Assembly (NCBI GenBank): GCA_017537025.1
Contig: JAFWCB010000002.1
Location: 1-64,000 of the forward strand
Length of the DNA stretch: 64,000 nt
From: Sediminibacterium sp.
GTDB taxonomy: Bacteria; Bacteroidota; Bacteroidia; Chitinophagales; Chitinophagaceae
Reading direction: 5' to 3'
The first letter of the stretch is position 1. Each line of letters starts with the position of its first letter. Of the stretch, positions 51,740 through 64,000 are shown in pieces. Under the pieces are notes generated by a model that worked only from the letters and a program-made list of their open reading frames with translations, was not told the origin of the DNA and made no database searches. A program made the translations under genes and the position numbers.

Positions 51740-52423
51740 ATGATGTTTTATTTGCTACAAGTAGATACGTTACAAAAAGCAGCAGGTACCGTAGTTACTG
51801 CCGAAAAAATTTCTTTGTGGAGCTTACTGGAAAAAGGAGGTTGGATCATGTATCCACTTTACCTGTTACTAGTAGCCGCTATTTTTGTTTTTACAGAAAG
51901 ATGGATAGCGATTAGAAAAGCCGGTAGAATTGATGCCAATTTTATGGGGATCATTAGAGATCATATTTTAACAGGTAATGTACAAGCTGCTCGTAGTGTT
52001 ACTAAAAATACAGATAACCCGGTGGCTCGAATGATTGATAAGGGTATTCAGCGTATTGGTAAGCCTATTGATATTATTGAAAAAAGTATGGAGAATGTAG
52101 GCAGGCTGGAGATGTATAGCATGGAAAGAAATCTTTCGATCCTTTCTTTGATTGCCGGCATCGCACCGATGTTTGGTTTCTTAGGAACCATCATTGGGAT
52201 GGTACAATTATTTTATGGTATCGCTTCTACGGGTGAGTACACGCTTAATACAATTGCAGGGGGTATCTATACTAAAATGATTACTTCTGCTACGGGTCTT
52301 ATCATTGGTTTGATCGCTTATGTAGGGCATAATTTTTTATCGGTACAAATAGATAAAACAGCCAACAAAATGGAAGCGGCCAGTGCTGATTTTATGGATG
52401 TATTACAAGAACCCACAAGGTAG
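51740..52423 (+). CDS. ExbB/TolQ/MotA-family proton channel protein
   Basis: Inner-membrane proton-channel subunit of 227 aa that energises an envelope process. Three transmembrane segments with the family signature: an N-terminal helix (WIMYPLYLLLVAAIFVFTERW, about residues 34-54), then a long cytoplasmic domain, then LSLIAGIAPMFGFLGTIIGMVQLFYGI (about 132-158) and TGLIIGLIAYVGHNFL. The next gene encodes ExbD, so the pair probably serves TonB-type transport, or a Tol-like function. The stop codon is part of a period-7 array. Confidence 0.9.
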   Translation: MMFYLLQVDTLQKAAGTVVTAEKISLWSLLEKGGWIMYPLYLLLVAAIFVFTERWIAIRKAGRIDANFMGIIRDHILTGNVQAARSVTKNTDNPVARMIDKGIQRIGKPIDIIEKSMENVGRLEMYSMERNLSILSLIAGIAPMFGFLGTIIGMVQLFYGIASTGEYTLNTIAGGIYTKMITSATGLIIGLIAYVGHNFLSVQIDKTANKMEAASADFMDVLQEPTR

Positions 52424-52472
52424 TCAATAGTCATTAGTCATTAGTCATTGGTCAATTGTCATTAGTAATTGG
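52424..52472 (+). repeat. Period-7 degenerate array starting at the ExbB stop codon
   Basis: Seven heptamers: tcaatag tcattag tcattag tcattgg tcaattg tcattag taattgg, directly after the TAG stop (which itself continues the pattern) and ending 10 nt before the ExbD ATG. Consensus TCATTAG, a different sequence from the GGAAGGT arrays but the same period of seven. Confidence 0.88.
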
Positions 52473-52481
52473 AAGAAAGTT

Positions 52482-52886
52482 ATGAATATTAGAAAAAAAT
52501 TGAGATCCCAGCCCGAAATGCATACCGGTGCCTTAAATGATATTTTATTCATATTACTACTCTTTTTTCTCATTGTATCCACTTTAGCTAATCCGAACGT
52601 TATTAAAGTATCAAATCCTAAAGCCAAGGCCGATACAAAGGCAAAGCAAACAGTTGTAATTACCGTGGATAAAGCACAGCAACTCTATATCGGTTCAGAA
52701 AAAATTTTAATAGCTGATTTAGAAAATAAACTAAAGGCGTATTTGGCTAAGGAAACCGACAAACCTTCGGTTGTGATTAATGGAGATAGCACTGCACATT
52801 TAGGTACGGCTATTCAAATTATGCAAGTGATAAAAAAATTAGGTGCAACACCGGTTATGGCAGTGGATAATAGTGGCTTACGATAG
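52482..52886 (+). CDS. ExbD/TolR-family protein
   Basis: Single-pass inner-membrane partner of the ExbB-like channel, 134 aa. The transmembrane segment follows the conserved Asp20 (ALNDILFILLLFFLIVS), which is the proton-relay aspartate of ExbD/TolR. The periplasmic domain (about 45-134) has the ExbD fold, with AIQIMQVIKKLGATPVMAVDN near the end. Translationally linked to the ExbB gene through the intervening period-7 array. It converges with prmC with 3 nt between stops. Confidence 0.92.
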   Translation: MNIRKKLRSQPEMHTGALNDILFILLLFFLIVSTLANPNVIKVSNPKAKADTKAKQTVVITVDKAQQLYIGSEKILIADLENKLKAYLAKETDKPSVVINGDSTAHLGTAIQIMQVIKKLGATPVMAVDNSGLR

Positions 52887-52889
52887 CTT

Positions 52890-53744
52890 TTATTTCTTGA
52901 TCACTTTTAACATTCTATACTTACCCTGCATGTCTTTTTTAAGTGTAGTTTCAAAACTAGCGGATGAAAACAATGCGGCTGTTTGCATTGCTAGTGCCTC
53001 GTTTAACTCCAGATAAATAAGGGTATTCATTTGCAATTTTGTTTCTGCAAACAAAAGAATCTGTTTGTAAAAAATCAACGGATCATTATCGGGCACAAAT
53101 AAAGCTATATGCGGCTCGTAATCGAGCACATTCTTGTGCATACTGGCTTTTTCCTTTTCTGCTATATAAGGAGGGTTACTGATAAGGATGTCTACCGGAG
53201 GTAAAGAATCCCATTTGGAGGTATCTAAAAAATCGAGTTGCAGAAATTGTGTATCTGACCCGATCGTCTGTGCATTTTTCTTTGCAATGGCTAGGGCATT
53301 TGTACTAATATCAACACCATACGTTTTTATTGTCGATATTTTTTTTGCAATGGTAATCGGTATACAACCCGAGCCTGTGCCTACATCCAATAAATTGACT
53401 TGAGATATATTATTATTCAAATCGCTGAGAACCCATGCTACCAACTCTTCTGTTTCCGGTCGGGGTATGAGGGTATGTTCTGATACTGAAAATATGAAAC
53501 CATAAAACCAGGCTTCACCTAGCACATATTGAATGGGCATACCTTGTTGTAGTTTAACTATGGCCTGTTGTAAGCTTTCTACCTTTCGTTGCTCAATGAG
53601 TACATCTTTTTGTATGGTCTGATCCAATCTGGTAAAGCCGGTAATTTTTTCAAGTAGTAAAGCTGTAATGGCAGTAATTTCTCTTTGTTCATACAAATGA
53701 GAAGTAGCATTTCTTATTTCTTTTTTTGCCTCAGCAATAGTCAT
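52890..53744 (-). CDS. prmC: Peptide chain release factor N5-glutamine methyltransferase
   Basis: Methylates the GGQ glutamine of release factors, 284 aa. The N-terminal helical domain is followed by a Rossmann fold: VTGLLDVGTGSGCIPITIAKK-like loop (LDVGTGSGCIPITI, about residues 120-133), the catalytic NPPY in LISNPPYIAEKE, and TLIPRPETEELV (about 94-105), all family-specific. The start codon shares two bases with the far upstream part of the ribD frame on the opposite strand, so prmC and ribD are divergent with a tiny gap. Confidence 0.95.
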   Translation of the reverse strand: MTIAEAKKEIRNATSHLYEQREITAITALLLEKITGFTRLDQTIQKDVLIEQRKVESLQQAIVKLQQGMPIQYVLGEAWFYGFIFSVSEHTLIPRPETEELVAWVLSDLNNNISQVNLLDVGTGSGCIPITIAKKISTIKTYGVDISTNALAIAKKNAQTIGSDTQFLQLDFLDTSKWDSLPPVDILISNPPYIAEKEKASMHKNVLDYEPHIALFVPDNDPLIFYKQILLFAETKLQMNTLIYLELNEALAMQTAALFSSASFETTLKKDMQGKYRMLKVIKK

Positions 53745-53768
53745 GCTGCAATGTTACTATCATTTAGC

Positions 53769-53776
53769 TAATTTTG
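53769..53776 (+). promoter_or_regulatory. Bacteroidota -7 box of ribD
   Basis: TAATTTTG followed by C, a perfect TAnnTTTG match, 11 nt before ATG 53788; it favours 53788 (or the ATG at 53809) over the upstream frame start. Confidence 0.65.
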
Positions 53777-53787
53777 CAGGTTCAGCT

Positions 53788-54831
53788 ATGGATATACAAG
53801 AGAAATATATGCAGCGATGTATAGCGCTTGCCCGGCGGGGGTTAGGTGCTGTAGCACCTAACCCGATGGTAGGTGCCGTGTTGGTATATGAAGATCAAAT
53901 TATCGGAGAAGGATGGCATGCCAAGTATGGAGAAGCACATGCTGAAGTAAATTGCTTACAATCGGTTGATGCCACTAATACCGATAAAATTCCTAAAGCT
54001 ACCTTATTCGTATCGCTGGAGCCTTGTGCTCATTATGGTAAAACCCCCCCTTGTACCAATTTAATTATACAACGCAAAATTCAACGCGTAGTAGTGGGTT
54101 GTGTGGATCCCTTCAAAGAAGTTGCGGGTAAAGGTATCAATCAGCTACGTGATGCTGGAGTGGAGGTGATTGTTGGCGTTTTAGAAAAAGAATGTATAGA
54201 TCTCAATAAACGCTTTTTTACTTATCATGAAAAAAAAAGACCCTATGTTATTTTAAAATGGGCACAAACGGCTGATAAAAAAATAGCTGTTGATACCGGT
54301 AAACGTCTGTACATTTCAGGTGAGGCTACAAATAAATTCGTTCATCAATGGCGCTCCGAAGAACAAGCTATTTTGATAGGTGCTAATACGGCTTTATATG
54401 ATAATCCAAAACTAACAGTACGATTGGTAGCAGGTGATAATCCTATCCGGTTATTAATCGATCCAAATCTCAAAACGCCGATAACACAAGATCTATTTAC
54501 AGATAATAATAAAACAGTGGTTTATAATTTTCATCAAAAGATGAGAAAAGATAATCTTTATTATGTGGAATTGAATAAAGAAAAAAAAATGATACCTCAA
54601 ATTTTAGCCGATTGTTACGAGAGAGGTATTCAAAGTATTTTAGTAGAAGGAGGTGCCTATACCATTCAGCAATTTATTAATGAGGGTATATGGGATCAGG
54701 CCAGGGTTATAGAAAATAATAGTTTAGCAATAGGAGATGGGTTAGCTGCACCCACCTTGAGTCATTATATTTTGCAGCATCAAGAGCAGCTCGGAAAAGA
54801 TTTAATTAGCTATTTTTTACAACTAAATTGA
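53788..54831 (+). CDS. ribD: Riboflavin biosynthesis deaminase/reductase RibD
   Basis: Bifunctional enzyme of riboflavin synthesis (deamination then reduction of the pyrimidine intermediate), 347 aa. Deaminase domain: CIALARRGLGAVAPNPMVGAVLV (residues 8-30), zinc motif HAEVNCL (His and Glu) and PCAHYGKTPPC (Cys pair, about 78-88). Reductase domain from about residue 148 (YVILKWAQTADKKIAV, SILVEGGAYTIQQFI). ATG 53788 is chosen from the promoter position. Within the first 30 codons is a 12-bp perfect hairpin (53839-53864) of possible regulatory use. Confidence 0.95.
   Translation: MDIQEKYMQRCIALARRGLGAVAPNPMVGAVLVYEDQIIGEGWHAKYGEAHAEVNCLQSVDATNTDKIPKATLFVSLEPCAHYGKTPPCTNLIIQRKIQRVVVGCVDPFKEVAGKGINQLRDAGVEVIVGVLEKECIDLNKRFFTYHEKKRPYVILKWAQTADKKIAVDTGKRLYISGEATNKFVHQWRSEEQAILIGANTALYDNPKLTVRLVAGDNPIRLLIDPNLKTPITQDLFTDNNKTVVYNFHQKMRKDNLYYVELNKEKKMIPQILADCYERGIQSILVEGGAYTIQQFINEGIWDQARVIENNSLAIGDGLAAPTLSHYILQHQEQLGKDLISYFLQLN
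53839..53864 (+). other. Perfect 12-bp inverted repeat in the 5' end of ribD
   Basis: gggttaggtgct and agcacctaaccc are exact reverse complements separated by only gt. It lies 51 nt into the ribD coding sequence (codons 18-26), close to the start of the transcript, and would fold into a very stable hairpin. Confidence 0.85.
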
Positions 54832-54835
54832 TCGG

Positions 54836-55729
54836 ATGATTTATTTATTAGGCAGTATTATATTAACCAGTTATTTAACACTTGCGTTTAAAGCTTGTGA
54901 GAAATGGGGAATATCGGTTTTCCCCGCTATCATTTTTAATTATATCACTTGCGTGATTACTGGCTCTTTTGTAAATGGGTCTTTTCCTATCAATAGCCAC
55001 ACCATACAAACAGATTGGTTTAAGTGGGCCATGCTTATGGGTGTATTATTTGTATCAATTTTTAATATTATTGGTATTACCGCACAAAAGATTGGTGTTG
55101 CAGTAGCTTCTGTTGCGAATAAATTATCGCTTGTAATTCCGGTAGTATTATCTGTATATCTCTATAACGAAACGGTAGCCGGTTGGAAGCTTGTAGGCGT
55201 AATGATGGCTATAGTAGCGGTAATATTTACTTGTTATCCTAATAGTAGTAATAAGAATAGTACTGGCGCGGTTTCTTCTAAAATGAAGATAATACTTCCG
55301 TTAATTTTATTTATTGGTAGTGGGTTACTAGATGCCTTAATCAATCATGTACAACAAAAATATGTGACTGTAGAAAATAATAACGCTTATCTGATCAGTG
55401 GTTTCTTCTCTGCAGCCTGCATTGGAACGGCTATCCTCTTATTTCAATATATCAGTGGTAAAAGAGTATTTGTAGCGAAGGAATTACTAGCCGGTATTTG
55501 TATTGGGATACCAAATTATTTTTCTATTTGGTGTTTGGTAACCTTCTTGCAACAAAGTCCTTGGGAAAGTAGTGCGAGTATCCCGGTTAATAATATGGGT
55601 ATTGTACTTTTCAGTACACTGGTTGCCTGGGTACTATTTAAAGAAAAGCTGTCTACTATAAATTGGATCGGTGTATTGCTTTCTATTGTTGCTATTTTTT
55701 TAATAGCGTTTGGTAATAGCTTGCTTTAG
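54836..55729 (+). CDS. EamA/DMT-family transporter
   Basis: Inner-membrane transporter of 297 aa with about ten hydrophobic helices in two EamA-like halves, each ending in a conserved pattern such as SVANKLSLVIPVVLSVYLYNE (first half, about residues 97-117) and NNMGIVLFSTLVAWVLFKEKLS (second half, about 255-276). Family members export metabolites or act as drug/metabolite carriers; the substrate is unknown. It starts 4 nt after ribD and so is probably co-transcribed. It converges with the YdcF-like gene, overlapping by 4 nt. Confidence 0.85.
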   Translation: MIYLLGSIILTSYLTLAFKACEKWGISVFPAIIFNYITCVITGSFVNGSFPINSHTIQTDWFKWAMLMGVLFVSIFNIIGITAQKIGVAVASVANKLSLVIPVVLSVYLYNETVAGWKLVGVMMAIVAVIFTCYPNSSNKNSTGAVSSKMKIILPLILFIGSGLLDALINHVQQKYVTVENNNAYLISGFFSAACIGTAILLFQYISGKRVFVAKELLAGICIGIPNYFSIWCLVTFLQQSPWESSASIPVNNMGIVLFSTLVAWVLFKEKLSTINWIGVLLSIVAIFLIAFGNSLL

Positions 55730-56487
55730 GCTTTACCGGAAAGTTTATAGGCCATTAGGCCAACCCATTCTTTGATGAGTGCTCTCCAGTCTCTAAACAG
55801 CGAAGCTTCTGGTATATAAAGACTTCTAGGCTCTAATTTTTTTTCAAATTCGCTAAAATCACAAGGATATTTTATGATATCCTTATAGCCGGCTTTCTTA
55901 AATACCGCAGCAGAACGAGGCATATGTATAGCTGAGGTAATAAGTACATAAGGGCCAGATATTTGTAATGAGTCAATAATCCCCTTACTGAAAACAGCAT
56001 TCTCATACGTGTTTCTAGATCTTCGCTCAACGATGATATCTTCTTTCTTTACTCCATTTCTAATAAATTCTCGAGCCAAAAAACTAGCTTCATCAGGTTC
56101 ATTTACCATAAGCTTTCCACTACCTCCCGATATAATAATTTTTTTTATCACCCGGGTATGATAAAGGTTTGCAGTTTGAATAAAGCGATCCGCATTTTCA
56201 CCAAAAAAACCTCTATCATGCTTATCGTAATAACTCATTCCACCTAATAAAATCCCTACTCCATAGCCACTACTGTCTTTCAGGGTAATAGGTTTTGGTT
56301 GATAGCTCAACACAATTTTGTTGAACAGAAATGGGTTAGTGAAAATAATAAACAGCACAAAGCTTATTATTCGTAAACGTTTTTTTCTTAATACCGATTT
56401 GCTAAAAAAAGACCAAATAAATAGAACTAAAATCCATGTAAGCGGATCAATTAGGAAAAAGAGAATTTTAGATAGAACAAAAAACAT
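55726..56487 (-). CDS. YdcF/ElyC-family (DUF218) membrane protein
   Basis: Envelope protein of 253 aa with two N-terminal membrane helices (residues 1-25 and 32-55) and a DUF218 domain: GVGILLGGMSYYD (about 75-87), RVIKKIIISGGSGKL, IVERRSRNTYENAVFS (about 153-168) and VLITSAIHMPRSAAVFKKAGY (about 180-200). Relatives take part in murein or polysaccharide precursor control (ElyC/SanA). It lies 40 nt after the TolC-like gene on the same strand and shares its AT-rich composition, so it may be the last gene of the secretion operon, though it need not function in it. Confidence 0.82.
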   Translation of the reverse strand: MFFVLSKILFFLIDPLTWILVLFIWSFFSKSVLRKKRLRIISFVLFIIFTNPFLFNKIVLSYQPKPITLKDSSGYGVGILLGGMSYYDKHDRGFFGENADRFIQTANLYHTRVIKKIIISGGSGKLMVNEPDEASFLAREFIRNGVKKEDIIVERRSRNTYENAVFSKGIIDSLQISGPYVLITSAIHMPRSAAVFKKAGYKDIIKYPCDFSEFEKKLEPRSLYIPEASLFRDWRALIKEWVGLMAYKLSGKA

Positions 56488-56527
56488 AATTGATCTTATG
56501 AAAATGAAAGAAACATTTCAGTTTGAG

Positions 56528-57889
56528 CTATTTTTTAATTCTAAAATTTTCAGAAGAATTTAACATATTAGATAAAATTAATGATTTATATATGAGATCT
56601 ATATATGCAGCTTCAGTTTTATAAAGCAAAGTTCTACGCTCATTATCATAAGTAATAAAATCTACAAAAGTACCCTTTCCTAATAATACGCCTTCCTCTG
56701 CTAGTTCGACAATATCATTCTGTAATCTTGCAATTTCTCTAAGTTCTTTATAGTATTTTTCTGCGATCTGACATGATTCAAGTGATATTGAGTAGTCTCT
56801 AATAAATTGGTTTCGCGAAAAAATATAATTTTCGGTAAGATTTTTCTTTTCAATAATTGCTTTTCTTAATGAGTAATCTAAACTCTTATGATTCATTATA
56901 GGAACAAATAAACTAATACCAGCTATTTGATTGAAATTTGCGCCAAGTTGCAATCCAAAATCATCAAACCAGTTTTTAATTCTCTTTTGTTGTACAAAGC
57001 CAGTAAATATTGAACTTGCACTAAAGACAGCTCTAAATTCTGGCAGTTTAGCAGATTTAGCTTGTTTTATCCTTAAGTCAGCAATTAGTATCCTAGTATC
57101 AAAATACTTTGAAATTGGATCTAAATAGGAGTCATTGAAATCATATTTGTGAGCGATAAACTTTGTAGGGTCATATATTACCTCAATAAGAGCACTATCT
57201 AGATATGGCATTATTGAAAACGAGTCAGTTGCTAAAAAATTCGCTTGCATTTTATTACGCTGTAGTGAAATTTTTGATTCAATATCAAGAAAGAGCAAAC
57301 TGTCATTTTTGCAACGTGAGATTATTTGTAGAAACAATAGCTTGGAATATTTTCCGTTTCGATAGCCAATTTCAATGTGATTTTGTAATTTTTTGCTTAT
57401 CATATAAAAGCTTGATAGCATAGCTTTTTGTTTTTCTAATAGGTAAAGTGAAAAATATTCTGAGGCAGCTATAGAAAAAAGCTTTTGTAATTCAATTGTT
57501 ATTTCTTTTTCAACAGAAATAACTTCAATTTTTTTTTCTTTTAAAAAGGAGGTATTTTTTCCAAAACTATAAATTGGAAAATCGCCAATAAGTTGCGGTC
57601 TAAGCGCAACAAGACTGATATCAACGAAAGTATTTGTGCTTGGGTCTATACTTTTCCCAAACTGAAATGCGTTCAATAAATTAAAATTTAAGCTTGGACT
57701 AAATTTAGCTGCGGCTGCCTTTTTATCAATAACACTAGCGTCTTTCTTATTTAAAAGCGTTCGTAAAGCATTACTATTGAAATATACTGAGTCAAGATAA
57801 TCTGAAAAACTAATATTTCTATATTTTCCGTTTTGACTAAAGCAACAGAATGATAGAAACAAAAATAAGCTACACAATAATTTCTTCAT
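56528..57889 (-). CDS. TolC-family outer-membrane efflux protein (type I secretion)
   Basis: Exported outer-membrane channel of 453 aa. Signal peptide ends FCCFSQ; two TolC repeats of long helices and strands follow, with NRxAxxxFSPxLN-like stretches (DKKAAAAKFSPSLNFNLLN, about 52-70) and the second repeat from about 255 (YFDTRILIADLRIKQAKSAKLPEFRAV). It forms the outer part of the exporter together with the HlyD-like adaptor 6 nt upstream and the C39-ABC transporter. The sequence is rich in Ile, Lys and Phe, unlike the conserved housekeeping genes around it. Confidence 0.88.
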   Translation of the reverse strand: MKKLLCSLFLFLSFCCFSQNGKYRNISFSDYLDSVYFNSNALRTLLNKKDASVIDKKAAAAKFSPSLNFNLLNAFQFGKSIDPSTNTFVDISLVALRPQLIGDFPIYSFGKNTSFLKEKKIEVISVEKEITIELQKLFSIAASEYFSLYLLEKQKAMLSSFYMISKKLQNHIEIGYRNGKYSKLLFLQIISRCKNDSLLFLDIESKISLQRNKMQANFLATDSFSIMPYLDSALIEVIYDPTKFIAHKYDFNDSYLDPISKYFDTRILIADLRIKQAKSAKLPEFRAVFSASSIFTGFVQQKRIKNWFDDFGLQLGANFNQIAGISLFVPIMNHKSLDYSLRKAIIEKKNLTENYIFSRNQFIRDYSISLESCQIAEKYYKELREIARLQNDIVELAEEGVLLGKGTFVDFITYDNERRTLLYKTEAAYIDLIYKSLILSNMLNSSENFRIKK

Positions 57890-57895
57890 ATTGCT

Positions 57896-59191
57896 CTATT
57901 TAAGTGATGAGAAAAACCGCTCAAATAGCCTTTTTTCATTTATTAGAATTTCACCTACCCCACTAAGTTCATTTGTGAGGGGAAGTGTTTTATTCATGTT
58001 GGTCATAAGGGGGTTGGGGAGGCCGACTTTTACGAGCAATAAAATCCGTTCAGAATCTTTATTAGAAAAAGGGATAGGCGTGTTTGAAATTTCTTCTACA
58101 ATCCCAGTTAGGTAGCCGTACTCGGTATATGGAAACATATTTAGTTTTATTAGAACTTTTTGCCCTTTTATAACTTTCCCTGCATCTACTTCATTAATAT
58201 ATAGGTTGGCATGCCAGTTATAATTGATAGGAACAATTGAAAAAATGGTTTCATTTTGCAATACAAAACTTTCATTTTTTGCATTTGGGCCTTTTTCTAG
58301 TTTGCCATTGCAGGGTGATATAATTAGGTATCGATTTTTCCATTCACGTACCAATGCTTGTAAAATAGAAACCTGTTCAATGATTTTAAAACGAATTTCC
58401 CTTTCTTTTAATGAGGTAACTAACTCCAAATTAGAAAGAGCGAGCTTCGATTCTTCTAGCGACATGTCAGAAGAATGAATTAACCTCTCGATAGCATATA
58501 AATCCTGAGAAGACGTAATTGTAGTTACCTTATCTTTCTCATAATCTAATCCAGAAATGATTTCTTTAGTATAAAGCAGAGAGTCCCTTTTATTAATATT
58601 TTTAATGTATTTCTTTCTTTCCTCTAGTTCCAACAAGCTATTCATACTAGCATCGAGTATTTTTCTGTTAGTGATAATTTTCTTTTCTAAAAGAGCTTCG
58701 TTATATCTATGTTTTTTTTGAAGTAGAAATGCCTTTAACTCTTCTAAAACAGCGATAAGTGCATAATATCGTGAAGATAGCTCTCCAAGTTTCAATGAGG
58801 GAAAATTTGCAGGTGCTTCTTTAGTTGTAGAGCTTAAGCTAAATAAAATATTTTCAAGCTTGAGTATATCCTCCAACTCTGCAGCGTTCTGAATGACTGC
58901 TAAAGTTTGATTTTCTGAAACAATTTTCGTCGTATCATCTATCAAGAGTTTCATCTTGCCAGATGAAGTGGAAATTACTTTATAATTAGTTACACCATTT
59001 ACTAATTGTACAACCCCGTTCTGCACATCCGGATACTTAATAGTAAAGCACAGGAATAAAAAAATAAATAAGCAAAAAAAAATCAAAGATATTATATTAA
59101 AATAATGTGCACTTGATATTTTTTTAACAAATACATCTTGAGAAGCTTCTGAGCTATCAATATATACGCGAGTTTTAATATTTTGTTCCAT
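57896..59191 (-). CDS. HlyD-family periplasmic adaptor (type I secretion)
   Basis: Membrane-fusion protein of 431 aa. N-terminal cytoplasmic tail, one transmembrane helix (IISLIFFCLFIFLFLCFTIK, about residues 32-51), then lipoyl/barrel segments (VVQLVNGVTNYKVISTSSGKM, IVSENQTLAVIQNA) around a long coiled-coil hairpin (about 135-275), and the C-terminal beta domain with VDAGKVIKGQKVLIKLNMFPYTEYGYLTG, a typical HlyD stretch. ATG 59191 overlaps the C39-ABC stop by 1 nt (TGATG); a TTG just before would add one residue. It joins the ABC transporter to TolC. Confidence 0.9.
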   Translation of the reverse strand: MEQNIKTRVYIDSSEASQDVFVKKISSAHYFNIISLIFFCLFIFLFLCFTIKYPDVQNGVVQLVNGVTNYKVISTSSGKMKLLIDDTTKIVSENQTLAVIQNAAELEDILKLENILFSLSSTTKEAPANFPSLKLGELSSRYYALIAVLEELKAFLLQKKHRYNEALLEKKIITNRKILDASMNSLLELEERKKYIKNINKRDSLLYTKEIISGLDYEKDKVTTITSSQDLYAIERLIHSSDMSLEESKLALSNLELVTSLKEREIRFKIIEQVSILQALVREWKNRYLIISPCNGKLEKGPNAKNESFVLQNETIFSIVPINYNWHANLYINEVDAGKVIKGQKVLIKLNMFPYTEYGYLTGIVEEISNTPIPFSNKDSERILLLVKVGLPNPLMTNMNKTLPLTNELSGVGEILINEKRLFERFFSSLK

Positions 59192-61365
59192 CAATTATTG
59201 TGATTGTTTTCAACTAAAAGCTTTGCATAATTACTGTTTATGTCGAGCTCTAAGGTTTTTTGAGCATCATTTTCAAGAATCAAACCATCTCTCATTAGAA
59301 CTACTATATCTGCTTTTCTCGATAAGCTTAGCCGATGAGCGACCATAATAATTGTACACTTAGCAAAATTTGCTTTTATTGAGTCAATTATACTTACCTC
59401 GGTTTCAACATCAAGAGAATTTGTTGCTTCATCTAATATTAAGTACTTCGGGTCACGGTATAGCGCACGAGCGAGTAATATTTTTTGTTTTTGACCACCA
59501 CTTAAACCTCTTCCACCATCCCCAACTTTAGTATTGTAGCCTTGGTTGAAAGATGGTATATCATCACTAAGTCTAACTATTTCGGCAACTAGCTTGACTC
59601 TGTCAAAATTCATTAAATCAATATTCATAGTAATGTTGTCTAAAATTGTTCCTGATATAATTTTGCTATCTTGAGTCACTACACCAAAAACACTTCGCCA
59701 TTGCTGTAAATTAATTGATTTGATATTTGTGTTTCCTACAAGAATTTCTCCAAAACTTGGAGTGTATAGACCAAGCACTAACTTTAGAAGAGTACTTTTC
59801 CCACTTCCACTTTCGCCAAGTATTATTGTAAATTTTGATTCAATAAATTTAATATTTATACCTCGCAATGTAATATCTGTAGCTCCAGGGTATTGAAATG
59901 CAATATTTTGTAATGATATTTGATTGCTACTACTTAAGTTTACTAAAAGCAAATTTTCAGTAGTGAATTCTGAGGGTATAAAGCTCATTTCATTTAATCT
60001 TTTGAATGAGAGGTCAACATTTTGGAATTCAACTAGGAATGCTAAAATTTGAGAAACGGATGGAAATATCATTCCGATAAGTATTTGAATTGCAATCATT
60101 ACCCCGAAAGTAATTTCATTTTGTAAAACAAGTTTAGCACTTAAATATATTGAAACTTGATTACTTACTTGTAAAAGAAATGAGGAACCTGTATTAAGCA
60201 GATTGTTCATTCTGTAGACCCTCATTAGATCTGAAAAAGATTCAGCTTGATTTTTCTGCCATTTTTTTAAATTTTCTTTATGAAAGTCATTAAGTTTTAA
60301 ATCTAAAAAAAAACTAAGTGTGTTTACCCAAAATCCTTGATTCTTTGCAGTTCGCTCCGCATAATTCCAATCAAATTTTTTCTTTATTTTTAGGAGAGTA
60401 AAAATCCATAAGAAGTACGCCAAACAAAATATTAGAAATACAAAAGCAATAGGTTTGCTTAAATAAAAAAGAATTGAAGTAAAAACAACAAATGAAGTAA
60501 TTGAAAAAACAATATTAATTGCATGTGTTAGTAAAAAAGACTTAATCTTCTCATTATCAGTAACACGCTGTAACCAATCTCCAGAAAGTTTCGATTCAAA
60601 AAATGATAATGGCATTGCCATTAATTTTTTTAAATACGATACTCCTATATTTACGCTTGCTCTTGTTGAAATGCTTACAAGTAAAGAGTCTCTAAAAAAA
60701 ACGCCTAGGGCGGAAGAAAAAATTATTAAAATGTTACCAATTATTGCAATTTGTAGAAAATCAAAATCTTGTGTTCGTATACCTACGTCAATAATTGAGC
60801 GCGTTATAAAAGGCACTAGGCCTTGGAGAGCCGTGATAATAAATATCAAAACAAAGAGTGAGTAAATACTTTTTTTGTATGGAGAAAGGTGGACGTAAAA
60901 ATCAGTAATTTTTCTTTTTGTTATTTGAGAAACTGGTTTTTGAATATCTGAATTATACTCAATCTCTAGAACTACCCAGGATTTATCTTTTCCAAGCCAG
61001 CCATCTAAAAACTCTTCAACTGTATAACTTAATAAGCCTTTTGAAGGATCCGAAATGAAAACTTTTTTTTTGGTTATTTTGTATACAACAATAAAGTGAC
61101 TATTCTTCCAGTGAATAATGCAAGGCAAGCCCAGATCTTTTAACTCATGCCAGCCTAATCTCAAGCATGATGTATTAAAGCCAATACTTTCAAATGCGTT
61201 TTTAAGATCATAAATACTAACACCAATTTTATTACTCTTACATAACTGCCTTAAAAATCCAATTTCATAGTTTATGCGATAGTAGTTACAAATAATTGAT
61301 AAGCAAGCAGGACCGCAGTCCATAATATCCATTTGGTATTCATGTGGAAATTTTTTCAGCCCCAT
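59191..61365 (-). CDS. C39 peptidase-containing ABC transporter (PCAT)
   Basis: Combined leader peptidase and exporter, 724 aa. The C39 cysteine protease domain (residues 1-135) has the triad Cys17 (MDCGPACL), His90 (HWKNSHFIVVY) and Asp106 (ISDPSKG) plus a Gln11 oxyanion residue. Six transmembrane helices lie between about 165 and 440. The ATPase has Walker A GESGSGKSTLLKL, the signature LSGGQKQKILLARAL, Walker B YLILDEATNS and the H-loop MVAHRLS. PCATs remove double-glycine-type leaders while exporting peptides. Its likely substrate is the gene at 62125-62766, two genes upstream in the operon. Confidence 0.95.
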   Translation of the reverse strand: MGLKKFPHEYQMDIMDCGPACLSIICNYYRINYEIGFLRQLCKSNKIGVSIYDLKNAFESIGFNTSCLRLGWHELKDLGLPCIIHWKNSHFIVVYKITKKKVFISDPSKGLLSYTVEEFLDGWLGKDKSWVVLEIEYNSDIQKPVSQITKRKITDFYVHLSPYKKSIYSLFVLIFIITALQGLVPFITRSIIDVGIRTQDFDFLQIAIIGNILIIFSSALGVFFRDSLLVSISTRASVNIGVSYLKKLMAMPLSFFESKLSGDWLQRVTDNEKIKSFLLTHAINIVFSITSFVVFTSILFYLSKPIAFVFLIFCLAYFLWIFTLLKIKKKFDWNYAERTAKNQGFWVNTLSFFLDLKLNDFHKENLKKWQKNQAESFSDLMRVYRMNNLLNTGSSFLLQVSNQVSIYLSAKLVLQNEITFGVMIAIQILIGMIFPSVSQILAFLVEFQNVDLSFKRLNEMSFIPSEFTTENLLLVNLSSSNQISLQNIAFQYPGATDITLRGINIKFIESKFTIILGESGSGKSTLLKLVLGLYTPSFGEILVGNTNIKSINLQQWRSVFGVVTQDSKIISGTILDNITMNIDLMNFDRVKLVAEIVRLSDDIPSFNQGYNTKVGDGGRGLSGGQKQKILLARALYRDPKYLILDEATNSLDVETEVSIIDSIKANFAKCTIIMVAHRLSLSRKADIVVLMRDGLILENDAQKTLELDINSNYAKLLVENNHNN

Positions 61366-61379
61366 TTATTCTTATATTG

Positions 61380-62102
61380 TTAAAAATACGGTTCTTGTTT
61401 CGATAAAATTCTATTATTAATTTCTGTAATTTTTTTTGAGGTAGTGTAGCTTTTAAAAAGCCAAAATGAACCCAAAAAAAGAGGTAGTAGAATAGTTGGT
61501 TTCTGAACTTTAAAGAGCACAAATACAGCAACAAATAACGAAGCAATTGCTATTCTTAACAGTTTTTTTTGAGTTTCTTCTTTTGCGAAAAAGCCTACTT
61601 TAAATAGGGTATTTGAATTTGTTTTTAAATCATATAATAACAAAGAATTGATCAAGCAAGAGGCAAATTTTCTTTCTTCAGTATGGAGTAAAAAATGCAG
61701 AAGAAGGGTATCTTTTCTATGCTTTATTTTCAGTGAAAGGAATTTAATATTTTTAATTGAATCGTGATTGAAATCCTCGATTTTAAAATACTCAACATTA
61801 TCAAAGCGAATGCATTTGCTTTCTGCCTTTAACAAATATGTTTTCTTGAATAAAAAGGAAATTTCATAGTCTGAAAATTGGCAAATAGTTATCGGAGAAA
61901 GTTGCCGATAAATTTTTTTCGAAAAAATCAATAAAAGTATTTGAAAAAAAAATAAGGTATAAACAATATAATTGATAAATGCGAGCCCTCCAACTAAAGT
62001 AAACTGAAAAAAAAAAGTAACTAAAAAAAGAAAAAATGGAAAAAAAAGAATTACAAAAAACCGACCTCTTTTGAAAGTTGTAATCGAAAACTCATAATGC
62101 AT
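61380..62102 (-). CDS. Membrane protein between substrate and exporter, candidate immunity or accessory protein
   Basis: Not recognised. From ATG 62102 it is 240 aa; the frame extends 27 codons further upstream into the preceding gene, which I reject. Two adjacent N-terminal helices (about residues 14-35 and 39-60, very Phe-rich), a soluble middle of about 115 residues with short beta-like segments (KCIRFDNVEYFKIEDFN, NIKFLSLKIKHRKDTLLLH), and two C-terminal helices (about 185-225). Encoded 22 nt after the candidate substrate and 14 nt before the C39 transporter. Position and topology suit an immunity protein protecting the producer, or a processing accessory, but no sequence proof. Confidence 0.7.
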   Translation of the reverse strand: MHYEFSITTFKRGRFFVILFFPFFLFLVTFFFQFTLVGGLAFINYIVYTLFFFQILLLIFSKKIYRQLSPITICQFSDYEISFLFKKTYLLKAESKCIRFDNVEYFKIEDFNHDSIKNIKFLSLKIKHRKDTLLLHFLLHTEERKFASCLINSLLLYDLKTNSNTLFKVGFFAKEETQKKLLRIAIASLFVAVFVLFKVQKPTILLPLFLGSFWLFKSYTTSKKITEINNRILSKQEPYF

Positions 62103-62124
62103 TGATATTATTTTAAAGTTAAAG

Positions 62125-62766
62125 TTATTGCGGATTAGCCGCTCTATAAATGCTCCATCCGAGACTTGTAACACCAATGGCAAGTCCTGCCCCAGCAGAA
62201 ATTGTCACTCCTGGGAGGAGAAGAGGTATTGCTAATGTTATTGCTCCGATTGTTAAAAAGGATAGATCAACCCAGTCTGCAGCACTTAATTGAGAAAAAT
62301 CCCAGCCAACAGAATTTAATTTGGTAACAATTGAAATACCGTTGGTAACTACGCCTAATATACCAACCGTTGTTCCTATTCTTGATATAATTTGTTGATT
62401 TATCGGGTCACTAAAAAGTGCTTCAACTGATAAATTAACAATTTCAATTGCCCCAGCACCAAGACCAACTGCTGTAGCCAAATTAAGTAAATCATTCCTT
62501 AATGCCGTCATTTCTGCACTCATGTATCCACTTCCCCCTTGGAATAATTCCCCTTCTAAAGTTTTACCTTGCCCCTCAGATCCAGAGCTGCTTCCGCTTC
62601 CACCTAGTGTGTACGTAAGGAAGCCCATATTGAGCATGTACCAAGAGTTATAATTCATCCCATAAACTCGAGAATATGAACTAGAAACTTCAACAGGTGT
62701 AAGATCAGTTCCAGCGATAACTGACTTCATTTCATCATTACTTAGCTTATGTCCTTTATCATACAT
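62125..62766 (-). CDS. Candidate secreted bacteriocin/toxin-like protein with C39 leader
   Basis: Not recognised as a known family. 213 aa, no Cys. Residues 1-19 (HKLSNDEMKSVIAG at 6-19) resemble a double-glycine leader: LSxxEMKxxxxG pattern, ending Ala-Gly rather than Gly-Gly, predicted cut after Gly19. Then a Tyr/Ser-rich stretch (20-54), a Gly/Ser linker (55-69), and three hydrophobic segments with many small residues: LATAVGLGAGAIEIV (96-110), ISRIGTTVGILGVVTNGISI (128-147) and FLTIGAITLAIPLLLPGVTI (170-189), then AGAGLAIGVTSLGWSIY. This looks membrane-inserting. Probably exported by the downstream C39-ABC/HlyD/TolC system. Confidence 0.7.
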   Translation of the reverse strand: MYDKGHKLSNDEMKSVIAGTDLTPVEVSSSYSRVYGMNYNSWYMLNMGFLTYTLGGSGSSSGSEGQGKTLEGELFQGGSGYMSAEMTALRNDLLNLATAVGLGAGAIEIVNLSVEALFSDPINQQIISRIGTTVGILGVVTNGISIVTKLNSVGWDFSQLSAADWVDLSFLTIGAITLAIPLLLPGVTISAGAGLAIGVTSLGWSIYRAANPQ

Positions 62767-62935
62767 AAATTAAACTTTTTCTAAAACTAGTAAAAAAATC
62801 CGAAAAATCATTTTTTATTAAATAATTTTTAAGATCACCTATAAATGATGTTATCAAAATAAATATGACGCCAAACGATAAGTTTCTAAAAATTAAACTA
62901 TTATATGGGAAATTCAATTGGGACTTTAAAAAATG
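62767..62935 (-). promoter_or_regulatory. AT-rich upstream region of the secretion operon
   Basis: The 169 nt before the candidate substrate gene is very AT-rich and contains only near-matches to TAnnTTTG on the minus strand (such as TTATTTTG near 62861). It likely holds the operon promoter, but I cannot place it exactly. No terminator or inverted repeat stands out. Confidence 0.35.
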
Positions 62936-63832
62936 TCACTTACTGAAGTTTTTGCTCACGATTAACTCTTTTGAACCCGGTGTATAGGTATAAAAACCTT
63001 CTCCGGATTTTACACCTAGTTTACCTGCTGTTACCATATTTACTAAAAGCGGACACGGCGCGTATTTCGGGTTTCCGTATCCACTATAGAGTACATTCAT
63101 AATACTTAAACATACATCTAATCCAATAAAATCTGCCAATTGTAATGGACCCATTGGGTGAGCCATCCCCAACTTCATGATCGTATCAATTTCTTCAACA
63201 CCTGCGATACCTTCATACAAACTATAAATAGCTTCATTGATCATGGGCATCAATACCTTATTGGCAATAAATCCGGGATAATCATTAACTACAGAGGGAA
63301 TTTTTTGTAACTGTTTACTAAGTGCTACAATGGTTTCTGTTATACGCTTATCTGTGGCATAACCATTAATGATTTCAACCAGCTTCATTACCGGTACCGG
63401 ATTCATGAAATGCATGCCAATCACTTTGTCGGGGCGATTGGTGGCCGAAGCAATTTTAGTAATGGAAATAGATGAAGTATTGCTTGCCAATATACAAGTT
63501 GGCGGTGCTGCTGCATCCAAAGCACTAAATATTTTCAATTTCAAATCCACATTCTCCGTAGCGGCTTCAACCACTAAATCTGCTGCCGATACACCAACTT
63601 CAATACTTGTTTGGGTAGTAATATTAGCTAAAGTTGATTGTTTTACTTCTTCTGTGATGCTCCCTTTGCTAAGCTGGCGTTCCAAATTTTTAGCAATAGT
63701 TGCCAGTGCTTTTTCTAATTGGTTCTCTTGAACATCTATAAGGGTAACTTTAAAACCTGCTTGTGCAAAAACGTGGGCAATACCGTTTCCCATAGTTCCT
63801 GCTCCAATTACTGCTACTTGCTGAATGGCCAT
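62936..63832 (-). CDS. hbd: 3-hydroxybutyryl-CoA dehydrogenase
   Basis: NAD-dependent oxidation or reduction of 3-hydroxyacyl-CoA (fatty-acid or butyrate metabolism), 298 aa from ATG 63832. N-terminal NAD loop VAVIGAGTMGNGIAHVFAQAG, HFMNPVPVMKLVEII (catalytic His, about residues 139-153), DYPGFIANKVLMPMINEAI and GMAHPMGPLQLADFIGLD confirm the 3HCDH family. The frame extends to 63865, but a perfect TAnnTTTG box at 63851-63858 lies inside that extension, so I take the shorter start. Single-gene unit upstream of, and transcribed toward, the secretion operon. Confidence 0.95.
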   Translation of the reverse strand: MAIQQVAVIGAGTMGNGIAHVFAQAGFKVTLIDVQENQLEKALATIAKNLERQLSKGSITEEVKQSTLANITTQTSIEVGVSAADLVVEAATENVDLKLKIFSALDAAAPPTCILASNTSSISITKIASATNRPDKVIGMHFMNPVPVMKLVEIINGYATDKRITETIVALSKQLQKIPSVVNDYPGFIANKVLMPMINEAIYSLYEGIAGVEEIDTIMKLGMAHPMGPLQLADFIGLDVCLSIMNVLYSGYGNPKYAPCPLLVNMVTAGKLGVKSGEGFYTYTPGSKELIVSKNFSK

Positions 63833-63850
63833 ACAATCTTTTTTGTGGCG

Positions 63851-63858
63851 CAAAGGTA
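63851..63858 (-). promoter_or_regulatory. Bacteroidota -7 box of hbd
   Basis: Minus strand TACCTTTG, perfect TAnnTTTG, 18 nt before ATG 63832; it decides the start codon. Confidence 0.65.
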
Positions 63859-63877
63859 AGGGCAAAGAAGCAACTGC

Positions 63878-64000
63878 CTATTTTTTACGCTTGAAGTCGC
63901 CTCGCTTCCAGGCCTGAATAAAATCCATCCAGGCGGCTGGGTTCAGGATATTCATAGGGGGTATTTGTCCTGCGTAATAATATTTATTGGCTGATTGTCT
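63878..64000 (-). CDS. C-terminal end of an unknown protein (runs off window)
   Basis: The minus-strand frame is open from the window edge to TAG at 63878-63880, giving the last 40 residues: ...NKYYYAGQIPPMNILNPA, then AWMDFIQAWKRGDFKRKK. The lysine-rich ending is ordinary for a cytosolic protein. Not enough remains to name a family. It lies just upstream of hbd. Confidence 0.5.
   Translation of the reverse strand, partial: RQSANKYYYAGQIPPMNILNPAAWMDFIQAWKRGDFKRKK

What the first reader, a model, noticed from the sequence alone, without database searches (positions are those of the whole stretch)
55726..62766. C39-ABC/HlyD/TolC secretion operon with an unrecognised 213-residue leader-bearing, membrane-active substrate
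Seen: a same-strand run of six genes, starting with a Cys-free protein whose first 19 residues look like a C39 leader (LSNDEMKSVIAG) and whose body holds a Gly/Ser linker and three small-residue-rich hydrophobic segments, then a four-helix membrane protein, then a peptidase-ABC transporter with an intact Cys17/His90/Asp106 triad, HlyD adaptor, TolC channel and YdcF-like protein. Known: C39 transporters cut double-Gly-type leaders, and substrates are usually short bacteriocins. Inference: here the substrate is far larger and looks pore-forming, so it may be a new class of secreted antibacterial or contact toxin, with the membrane protein as immunity. The block is also visibly more AT-rich than its surroundings, fitting recent transfer.
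Basis: partly seen in the sequence, partly recalled or inferred. Interest (0 to 1): 0.78.

Follow-up and report, generated by a model that had tools for sequence, protein, structure and literature searches.

The report
Self-contained toxin export operon, Bacteroidota
This stretch looks like a transferred kit in which a bacterium makes a large membrane-damaging protein toxin, exports it through a pump that clips off its tag, and protects itself with a neighbouring membrane protein; similar pumps in related bacteria often sit beside equally large predicted toxins.

Summary
Confirmed: ORF1 (213 aa, no Cys) starts with a consensus C39 leader and is followed by a four-helix membrane protein (ORF2), a C39-ABC with intact triad, HlyD and TolC. 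The ydcF gene is not part: in 14 of 19 same-genus loci ydcF or EamA abuts hbd (5 undetermined), so the AT-rich five-gene block is an insert. Large cargo is not exceptional: leader profiles find such ORFs of at least 100 aa in 57 of 80 related transporter loci, and nearly all these transporters keep the catalytic residues, although a 2021 review puts the limit near 10 kDa. Some of this cargo matches toxin domains, and its next genes mostly encode exported or membrane proteins. Hydrophobic cargo is followed by multi-helix genes in 7 of 8 cases, other cargo in 6 of 58. ORF1 is among the most hydrophobic and has no known family. In two decayed loci the membrane gene is intact while the transporter is truncated, as expected of immunity. 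Best reading: a membrane-active secreted toxin with its immunity protein. TonB-box-like motifs in some cargo hint at an entry route.

The parts
62125..62766 (-). ORF1: 213-aa leader-bearing protein, predicted secreted membrane-active toxin
   Evidence: no match in Pfam, NCBIfam or PDB sequences, only chance-level PHROG matches
62710..62766 (-). ORF1 residues 1-19: C39 leader ending Ala-Gly
   Evidence: Ala-Gly ends also in cargo of L065, L073, L085, L134 and in the L174 piece
62566..62604 (-). ORF1 Gly/Ser-rich linker (residues 55-67)
   Evidence: sequence; Gly/Ser/Tyr-rich stretches recur in other cargo
62146..62493 (-). ORF1 hydrophobic body (residues 92-207)
61380..62102 (-). ORF2: 2TM-soluble-2TM membrane protein, predicted immunity
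   Evidence: distant homologues L053:8411-9157 and L054:7858-8592; architecture
59191..61365 (-). C39 peptidase-ABC exporter; C39 domain at 60991-61350
57896..59191 (-). HlyD-type periplasmic adaptor
56528..57889 (-). TolC-type outer membrane channel
56488..62935 (.). inserted block between ydcF and hbd
   Evidence: GC drop
55726..56487 (-). ydcF/DUF218: resident gene, NOT part of the system

Best explanation
The block 56488-62935 is a horizontally acquired, self-contained type I secretion cassette. ORF1 is made with a 19-residue leader, which the C39 domain of the ABC exporter cuts after Ala-Gly while HlyD and the dedicated TolC carry the 194-residue mature protein out. Outside, its hydrophobic body inserts into the inner membrane of competing cells and depolarises or permeabilises them. 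ORF2 sits in the producer's inner membrane and blocks this: immunity. Shown: gene content, leader consensus, catalytic residues, insertion site, and the company such leader proteins keep in related loci. Inferred: cleavage, export, toxicity, membrane target, immunity.
For: Leader statistics. Intact triad; 83 of 85 related transporter rows keep Q-C-H-D (two rows are duplicate records). A leader profile finds 70 ORFs of at least 100 aa in 54 of the 80 scanned loci plus L043 and L044 at E up to 5 (42 ORFs in 33 of the 80 plus 2 at E up to 0.01); shuffled N-termini give 4 such hits in five runs together. Pfam/NCBIfam matches among 71 scanned (70 plus ORF1) include Tox-MPTase2 (3), Toxin-JAB1 (3), Phage_lysozyme (2), Tae4 (2), Peptidase_C39_2 (2) and the Bfe1 T6SS effector family (1). 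The next gene encodes a predicted exported protein in 55, a multi-TM protein in 13 and a cytosolic-like protein in 4 of 77 cases, against 295, 71 and 453 of 819 genes of 100-420 aa in these loci. Hydrophobic cargo is followed by a gene with at least two TM segments in 7 of 8 cases, other cargo in 6 of 58 (Fisher 1.6e-5; window left out, 11 of 77 rows dropped); on sequence clusters a rank test gives p 0.0014 over 44 clusters. Sister locus L174: piece 54.5% identical to ORF1 residues 8-62, intact 232-aa membrane gene, transporter cut to 68 aa. L054: ORF2 homologue intact with short C39 pieces on both sides. Relatives without the insert.
Against: No relative of full-length ORF1 was found in 294 family genomes, 101 genus genomes, plasmids or viral contigs. 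ORF1 is not a significant member of the hydrophobic cargo family of L063/L069/L095/L110/L111: 3.9 bits, with 16 of 500 shuffles as high. GxxxG spacing is not above chance (3 against 1.4, p 0.15). With three hydrophobic clusters the yes/no cluster test is weak (2 of 3 against 5 of 41, p 0.06). L142 is hydrophobic cargo with a one-TM neighbour. The L174 membrane protein shares the architecture of ORF2 but no detectable homology (-5.6 bits, below shuffles). ORF1 itself scores only E 11 with the cargo leader profile. TM and export calls are simple hydropathy rules. No structure model.
Confidence: 0.7

Rival explanations
1. ORF1 is a C39-exported structural or surface protein (adhesin, matrix or fibril subunit) and ORF2 an assembly or accessory membrane protein.
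For: Gly/Ser linker and hydrophobic segments would also suit self-assembly; no toxin family matches ORF1.
Against: Some cargo of the same transporter clade matches toxin or cell-wall hydrolase families; neighbours look like cognate immunity genes, some in tandem copies; the membrane gene stays intact beside cut transporters in L174 and L054.
Confidence: 0.15
2. ORF1 is a Cdz/colicin V type small glycine-zipper bacteriocin, enlarged by a linker.
For: Same secretion logic and membrane immunity as in passages on Cdz (PMC5380434) and microcin V (PMC12511343).
Against: 213 aa against 84-86 aa; GxxxG not enriched; no Pfam or NCBIfam match up to E 1.
Confidence: 0.08
3. The operon is silent or decaying and ORF1 is a chance hydrophobic ORF with a leader-like start.
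For: No full-length homologue found; a sister locus is decayed.
Against: All five genes are open and tightly spaced; the leader is far beyond chance; leader and adjoining residues are conserved in a sister genome.
Confidence: 0.05

Closest known systems
Class II microcins (microcin V) with C39 type I secretion
   Same: C39-ABC, adaptor, TolC, cleaved leader, inner-membrane immunity protein, membrane-acting toxin (passages of PMC12511343)
   Different: ORF1 is 213 aa (microcins are under 10 kDa in that paper's passage); no family match; the host is of the Chitinophagaceae (inferred: two same-family genomes have contigs of the same length and sequence as records titled Filimonas zeae and Chitinophagaceae bacterium DXS); receptor unknown
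Cdz contact-dependent glycine-zipper system of Caulobacter
   Same: type I secretion, membrane-acting toxin, small membrane immunity protein (passages of PMC5380434)
   Different: Cdz toxins have 84 and 86 aa; ORF1 has 213 aa and no significant GxxxG excess
Polymorphic toxin systems and CDI ionophore toxins
   Same: shared N-terminal trafficking part, variable toxin part, adjacent immunity gene; CDI ionophores depolarise and have small hydrophobic immunity proteins (passages of PMC11630599)
   Different: trafficking here is by a cleaved C39 leader, which the abstract passage of PMC3482391 that I saw does not name among its secretory systems; the whole text was not read

Membership tests
C39 (PCAT) type I secretion system | C39 peptidase with Q-C-H-D fused to an ABC exporter | tested here: met
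C39 (PCAT) type I secretion system | HlyD adaptor and TolC-type channel | tested here: met
C39 (PCAT) type I secretion system | substrate with a consensus leader | tested here: met
   (sequence only; cleavage not shown)
Class II microcin | product below about 10 kDa | tested here: not met
   194-residue mature protein
Class II microcin | inner-membrane immunity protein | tested here: inconclusive
   ORF2 is a predicted membrane protein 22 bp downstream; protection untested
Class II microcin | uptake by a TonB-dependent receptor | not testable with these tools
   no functional data; ORF1 lacks the strict TonB-box-like motif
Cdz glycine-zipper bacteriocin | short protein with glycine zipper | tested here: not met
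   213 aa; GxxxG 3 against 1.4 expected, p 0.15
Polymorphic toxin system | common N-terminal part with varied C-terminal toxin domains and adjacent immunity-like genes (cargo set as a whole) | tested here: met
   immunity itself inferred
Polymorphic toxin system | recognised toxin domain in ORF1 | tested here: not met
Hydrophobic cargo family of L063/L069/L095/L110/L111 | significant profile score | tested here: not met
   3.9 bits, 16 of 500 shuffles as high
CDI ionophore toxins | five-helix ionophore fold | not testable with these tools
   structure prediction switched off

The most novel reading that the evidence does not exclude
A widespread, unrecognised arsenal of Bacteroidota: polymorphic antibacterial effectors of about 15-45 kDa exported through active C39 type I systems, entering rivals by presenting a TonB box of their own (L[DNP]EVxV, as in receptors of the same genomes), with cell-wall, peptidase or membrane-insertion warheads and compartment-matched immunity proteins. 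The window holds a membrane-insertion member of a new toxin family.
Probability: 0.3. Interest if true: 0.87.

Novelty: new variant of a known kind. Interest (0 to 1): 0.72.

Why it matters
A review passage says that transporters with an active C39 domain appear limited to substrates of about 10 kDa (PMC8277102). The loci here pair C39 transporters that keep the catalytic residues with leader-bearing proteins of mostly 150-465 residues, some with toxin-family matches, and with immunity-like neighbours. If confirmed, C39 type I systems would be a delivery route for full-sized polymorphic toxins in Bacteroidota, and the TonB-box-like motif would make it testable how such toxins cross a rival's outer membrane.

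Tried and rejected
Membership of ORF1 in the hydrophobic cargo family was tested and not met, although the alignment is colinear to a terminal W-x-[ILV]-Y. Glycine-zipper enrichment: not met. ydcF as part of the system: rejected. The weak ORF1 matches in G136 (inside a 951-aa frame) and G311 (E 0.045, inside a 186-aa frame) were read as chance; I saw no such operon genes among the ORFs listed around them. Weak ORF2 hits in G156 and G117 lie in frames with stops, and the one in G016 lies in a 78-codon frame overlapping a 349-aa ORF in another frame. ORF2 profile in 395 class genomes: only the window itself. A recalled Bacteroidota promoter pattern has 2 matches in the window against 5 expected, none near the block. 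No Rfam match in 52000-64000. Repeats around the block are weak and AT-rich, so no insertion mechanism is claimed. The block as DNA matches plasmids only by two short stretches in C39 transporter genes. The window's TolC and ydcF had no convincing relatives in the fetched loci (best E 0.0041 and 0.045).
Full report
What is there. The minus-strand run 62766->55726 holds the six ORFs described. ORF1 (213 aa) has no Cys. Its leader fits the C39 consensus at -12, -11, -8, -7, -4, -2 and -1; a passage of PMC8277102 gives L(-12)-x3-E(-8)-L(-7) as the recognition sequence. The pattern occurs in 1 of 60 window genes and in 0 of 65,850 shuffled N-termini. The body has hydrophobic segments at 92-119, 126-144 and 160-207. 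ORF2 has two hydrophobic stretches, each with room for two helices, around a middle of about 110 residues. The transporter has Q11, C17, H90 and D106. ORF1 and ORF2 match nothing in Pfam or NCBIfam up to E 1, ORF1 nothing among PDB sequences; PHROGs gave matches of E 0.2 or worse only.

The block is an insert and ydcF is not part of it. The EamA gene beside the block matched in 22 of 61 genomes of the genus, own genome included; 20 loci were returned, 19 from other genomes. In 10 of these 19 ydcF stands directly beside hbd, in 4 EamA stands directly beside hbd without ydcF, and in 5 the stretch ends too early to tell. None of the 14 readable cases has the five-gene block. GC of the block is 0.311 against 0.380 for the rest of the window.

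Large leader-bearing cargo is common beside this transporter clade. In 294 family genomes the best five transporters have 40-43% identity. A scan of one genome per species with an alignment of these and the window's gave 158 confirmed relatives, of which the best 80 were kept as loci; titles are of Bacteroidota except one of Cloacimonadota. A profile of 18 leaders found 70 ORFs of at least 100 aa at E up to 5, in 54 of the 80 loci plus L043 and L044; sizes 150-465 and one of 648 that holds a masked run; median 222. At E up to 0.01 it is 42 ORFs in 33 of the 80 loci plus 2 others; the 18 seeds are among the hits. Shuffled N-termini gave 1, 2, 0, 0 and 1 such hits at E up to 5 in five runs, and 68 of 70 have GG, GA, GS or AG at the profile end. 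A second profile added L102, L116 and L136, making 57 of 80. A domain search added L069, whose N-terminus shows a GG, and L063, in which I recognise no standard leader, making 59. Of the 21 loci left, 14 are shorter than 13 kb; L079 has a leader-like 440-aa ORF just beyond the threshold (E 9.5). ORF1 itself scores E 11 with this profile, its leader being shorter; its Ala-Gly end recurs in four Flavobacterium cargo ORFs. Of 85 related transporter rows 83 keep Q-C-H-D; two rows are duplicates of the same records, so 81 of 83. A passage of PMC8277102 says transporters with an active C39 domain appear limited to about 10 kDa.

The cargo looks like polymorphic toxins. Of 71 scanned (70 plus ORF1), 16 Pfam families were matched at E up to 0.01, by at most 23 members in all, among them Tox-MPTase2 (3), Toxin-JAB1 (3), Phage_lysozyme (2), Tae4 (2) and Peptidase_C39_2 (2); others are domains of unknown function or doubtful single matches. 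NCBIfam adds TIGR04149 (5), SA1320 family (3), a BgtA endolysin family (2) and the Bfe1 T6SS effector family (1), among 7 families. Of the 77 cargo ORFs used (70 plus 8 added, one dropped for its masked run), the next gene encodes a predicted exported protein in 55, a multi-TM protein in 13, a cytosolic-like protein in 4, a transporter in 2, and is missing in 3. All genes of 100-420 aa in the loci give 295, 71 and 453 of 819 for the first three classes (this background includes cargo and next genes and has a size limit the next genes did not have). The classes rest on hydropathy and lipobox rules.

Hydrophobic cargo goes with membrane neighbours. After dropping 11 of 77 rows (3 without a next gene, 8 with a next gene of 400 aa or more), 7 of 8 hydrophobic cargo ORFs are followed by a gene with at least two TM segments, against 6 of 58 others (Fisher 1.6e-5). 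The rows are not independent: six of the eight belong to one family. On sequence clusters the yes/no test is 2 of 3 against 5 of 41 (p 0.06) and the rank test over 44 clusters gives p 0.0014. The membrane gene is present in tandem copies in L069 and L110, and in L063 there is one per toxin copy. A further member of the family, L163, found in 1 of 395 class genomes, is followed by a gene that looks like a membrane protein by inspection. ORF1 has the second highest hydropathy peak of the 78 rows and ORF2 lies directly behind it.

Evidence that ORF2 is immunity. It has distant homologues in two genomes of the family at 23-24% identity. In L054 the homologue is intact between two short C39 pieces; in L053 no piece of ORF1, the transporter or HlyD was found at E up to 0.01. 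In a same-genus genome (L174) a piece matching ORF1 residues 8-62 at 54.5% identity (E 2e-13) is followed by an intact 232-aa protein with two-plus-two hydrophobic stretches and by a transporter cut to 68 residues. The hydrophobic body of the toxin is absent from that piece. The same genome has no insert at the ydcF/hbd site (L157). Keeping the membrane gene while toxin and transporter decay is what an orphan immunity gene would show. But there are two such loci only, and the L174 protein has no detectable homology to ORF2 (-5.6 bits).

A possible entry route. The motif [LIM][PNDET][ED][VI][VTIER][VI] occurs in 13 of 78 cargo ORFs (mature parts; L163 included), 0.175 on average in shuffles (largest 2 in 200 runs), and in 13 of 731 other proteins of 150-460 aa from the loci (Fisher 9e-8). 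Cautions: I composed the pattern after seeing examples in these proteins; related cargo is counted separately; and a looser form is found in 17 of 78 cargo ORFs against 112 of 731 others, a small difference. Among 158 ORFs of at least 700 aa, 6 have the strict motif in the first 200 residues: in four it lies 11-15 residues before a TonB-receptor Plug domain, one is an outer-membrane barrel protein, one has neither. That place is where a TonB box is expected (recalled). ORF1 reads LTPVEV at residues 22-27 and does not match; the sister piece reads LPEVIV. [quoted passage not shown] This remains a hypothesis.

Literature. Searches of the open library showed, in their listings, no paper on large C39-leader toxins of Bacteroidota; most subscription journals and all bioRxiv preprints are missing, and listings were capped, so this is no proof of novelty. 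Passages were seen of PMC3482391, PMC5380434, PMC11630599, PMC12136450 (reference list only), PMC8277102 and PMC12511343; all other papers as listings only.

Verdict. A complete, probably transferred export cassette with a probable membrane-acting toxin and its immunity protein. ORF1 has no known family. The wider set, large varied cargo beside C39 transporters that keep their catalytic residues, appears undescribed in what could be searched.

Noticed in passing
L055 (G000 contig C23, 117800-137000): The window's own genome has another C39-ABC/HlyD locus with several short Cys-rich leader peptides (54-77 aa): a peptide-type system, unlike the window's.
   Followed up: no
L056 (G000 contig C23, 193000-210000): A further C39-ABC/HlyD locus with two GG-leader peptides of 63 and 65 aa and a 142-aa membrane-like protein beside them.
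   Followed up: no
L069:14983-17036: One hydrophobic cargo ORF followed by three similar small membrane genes, suggesting an immunity array.
   Followed up: partly
L063:4641-9872: Three toxin/membrane-gene pairs in a row; the third toxin copy is split into two frames, and the N-termini show no standard leader.
   Followed up: partly
cargo of L122, L135, L110, L069, L095, L118: TonB-box-like motif in the linker of secreted cargo, like that of TonB-dependent receptors in loci of the same set.
   Followed up: partly
cargo of L084, L066, L085: Flavobacterium cargo with GHSLGGG, a lipase-like nucleophile motif (label recalled), followed by genes that look like lipoproteins.
   Followed up: no
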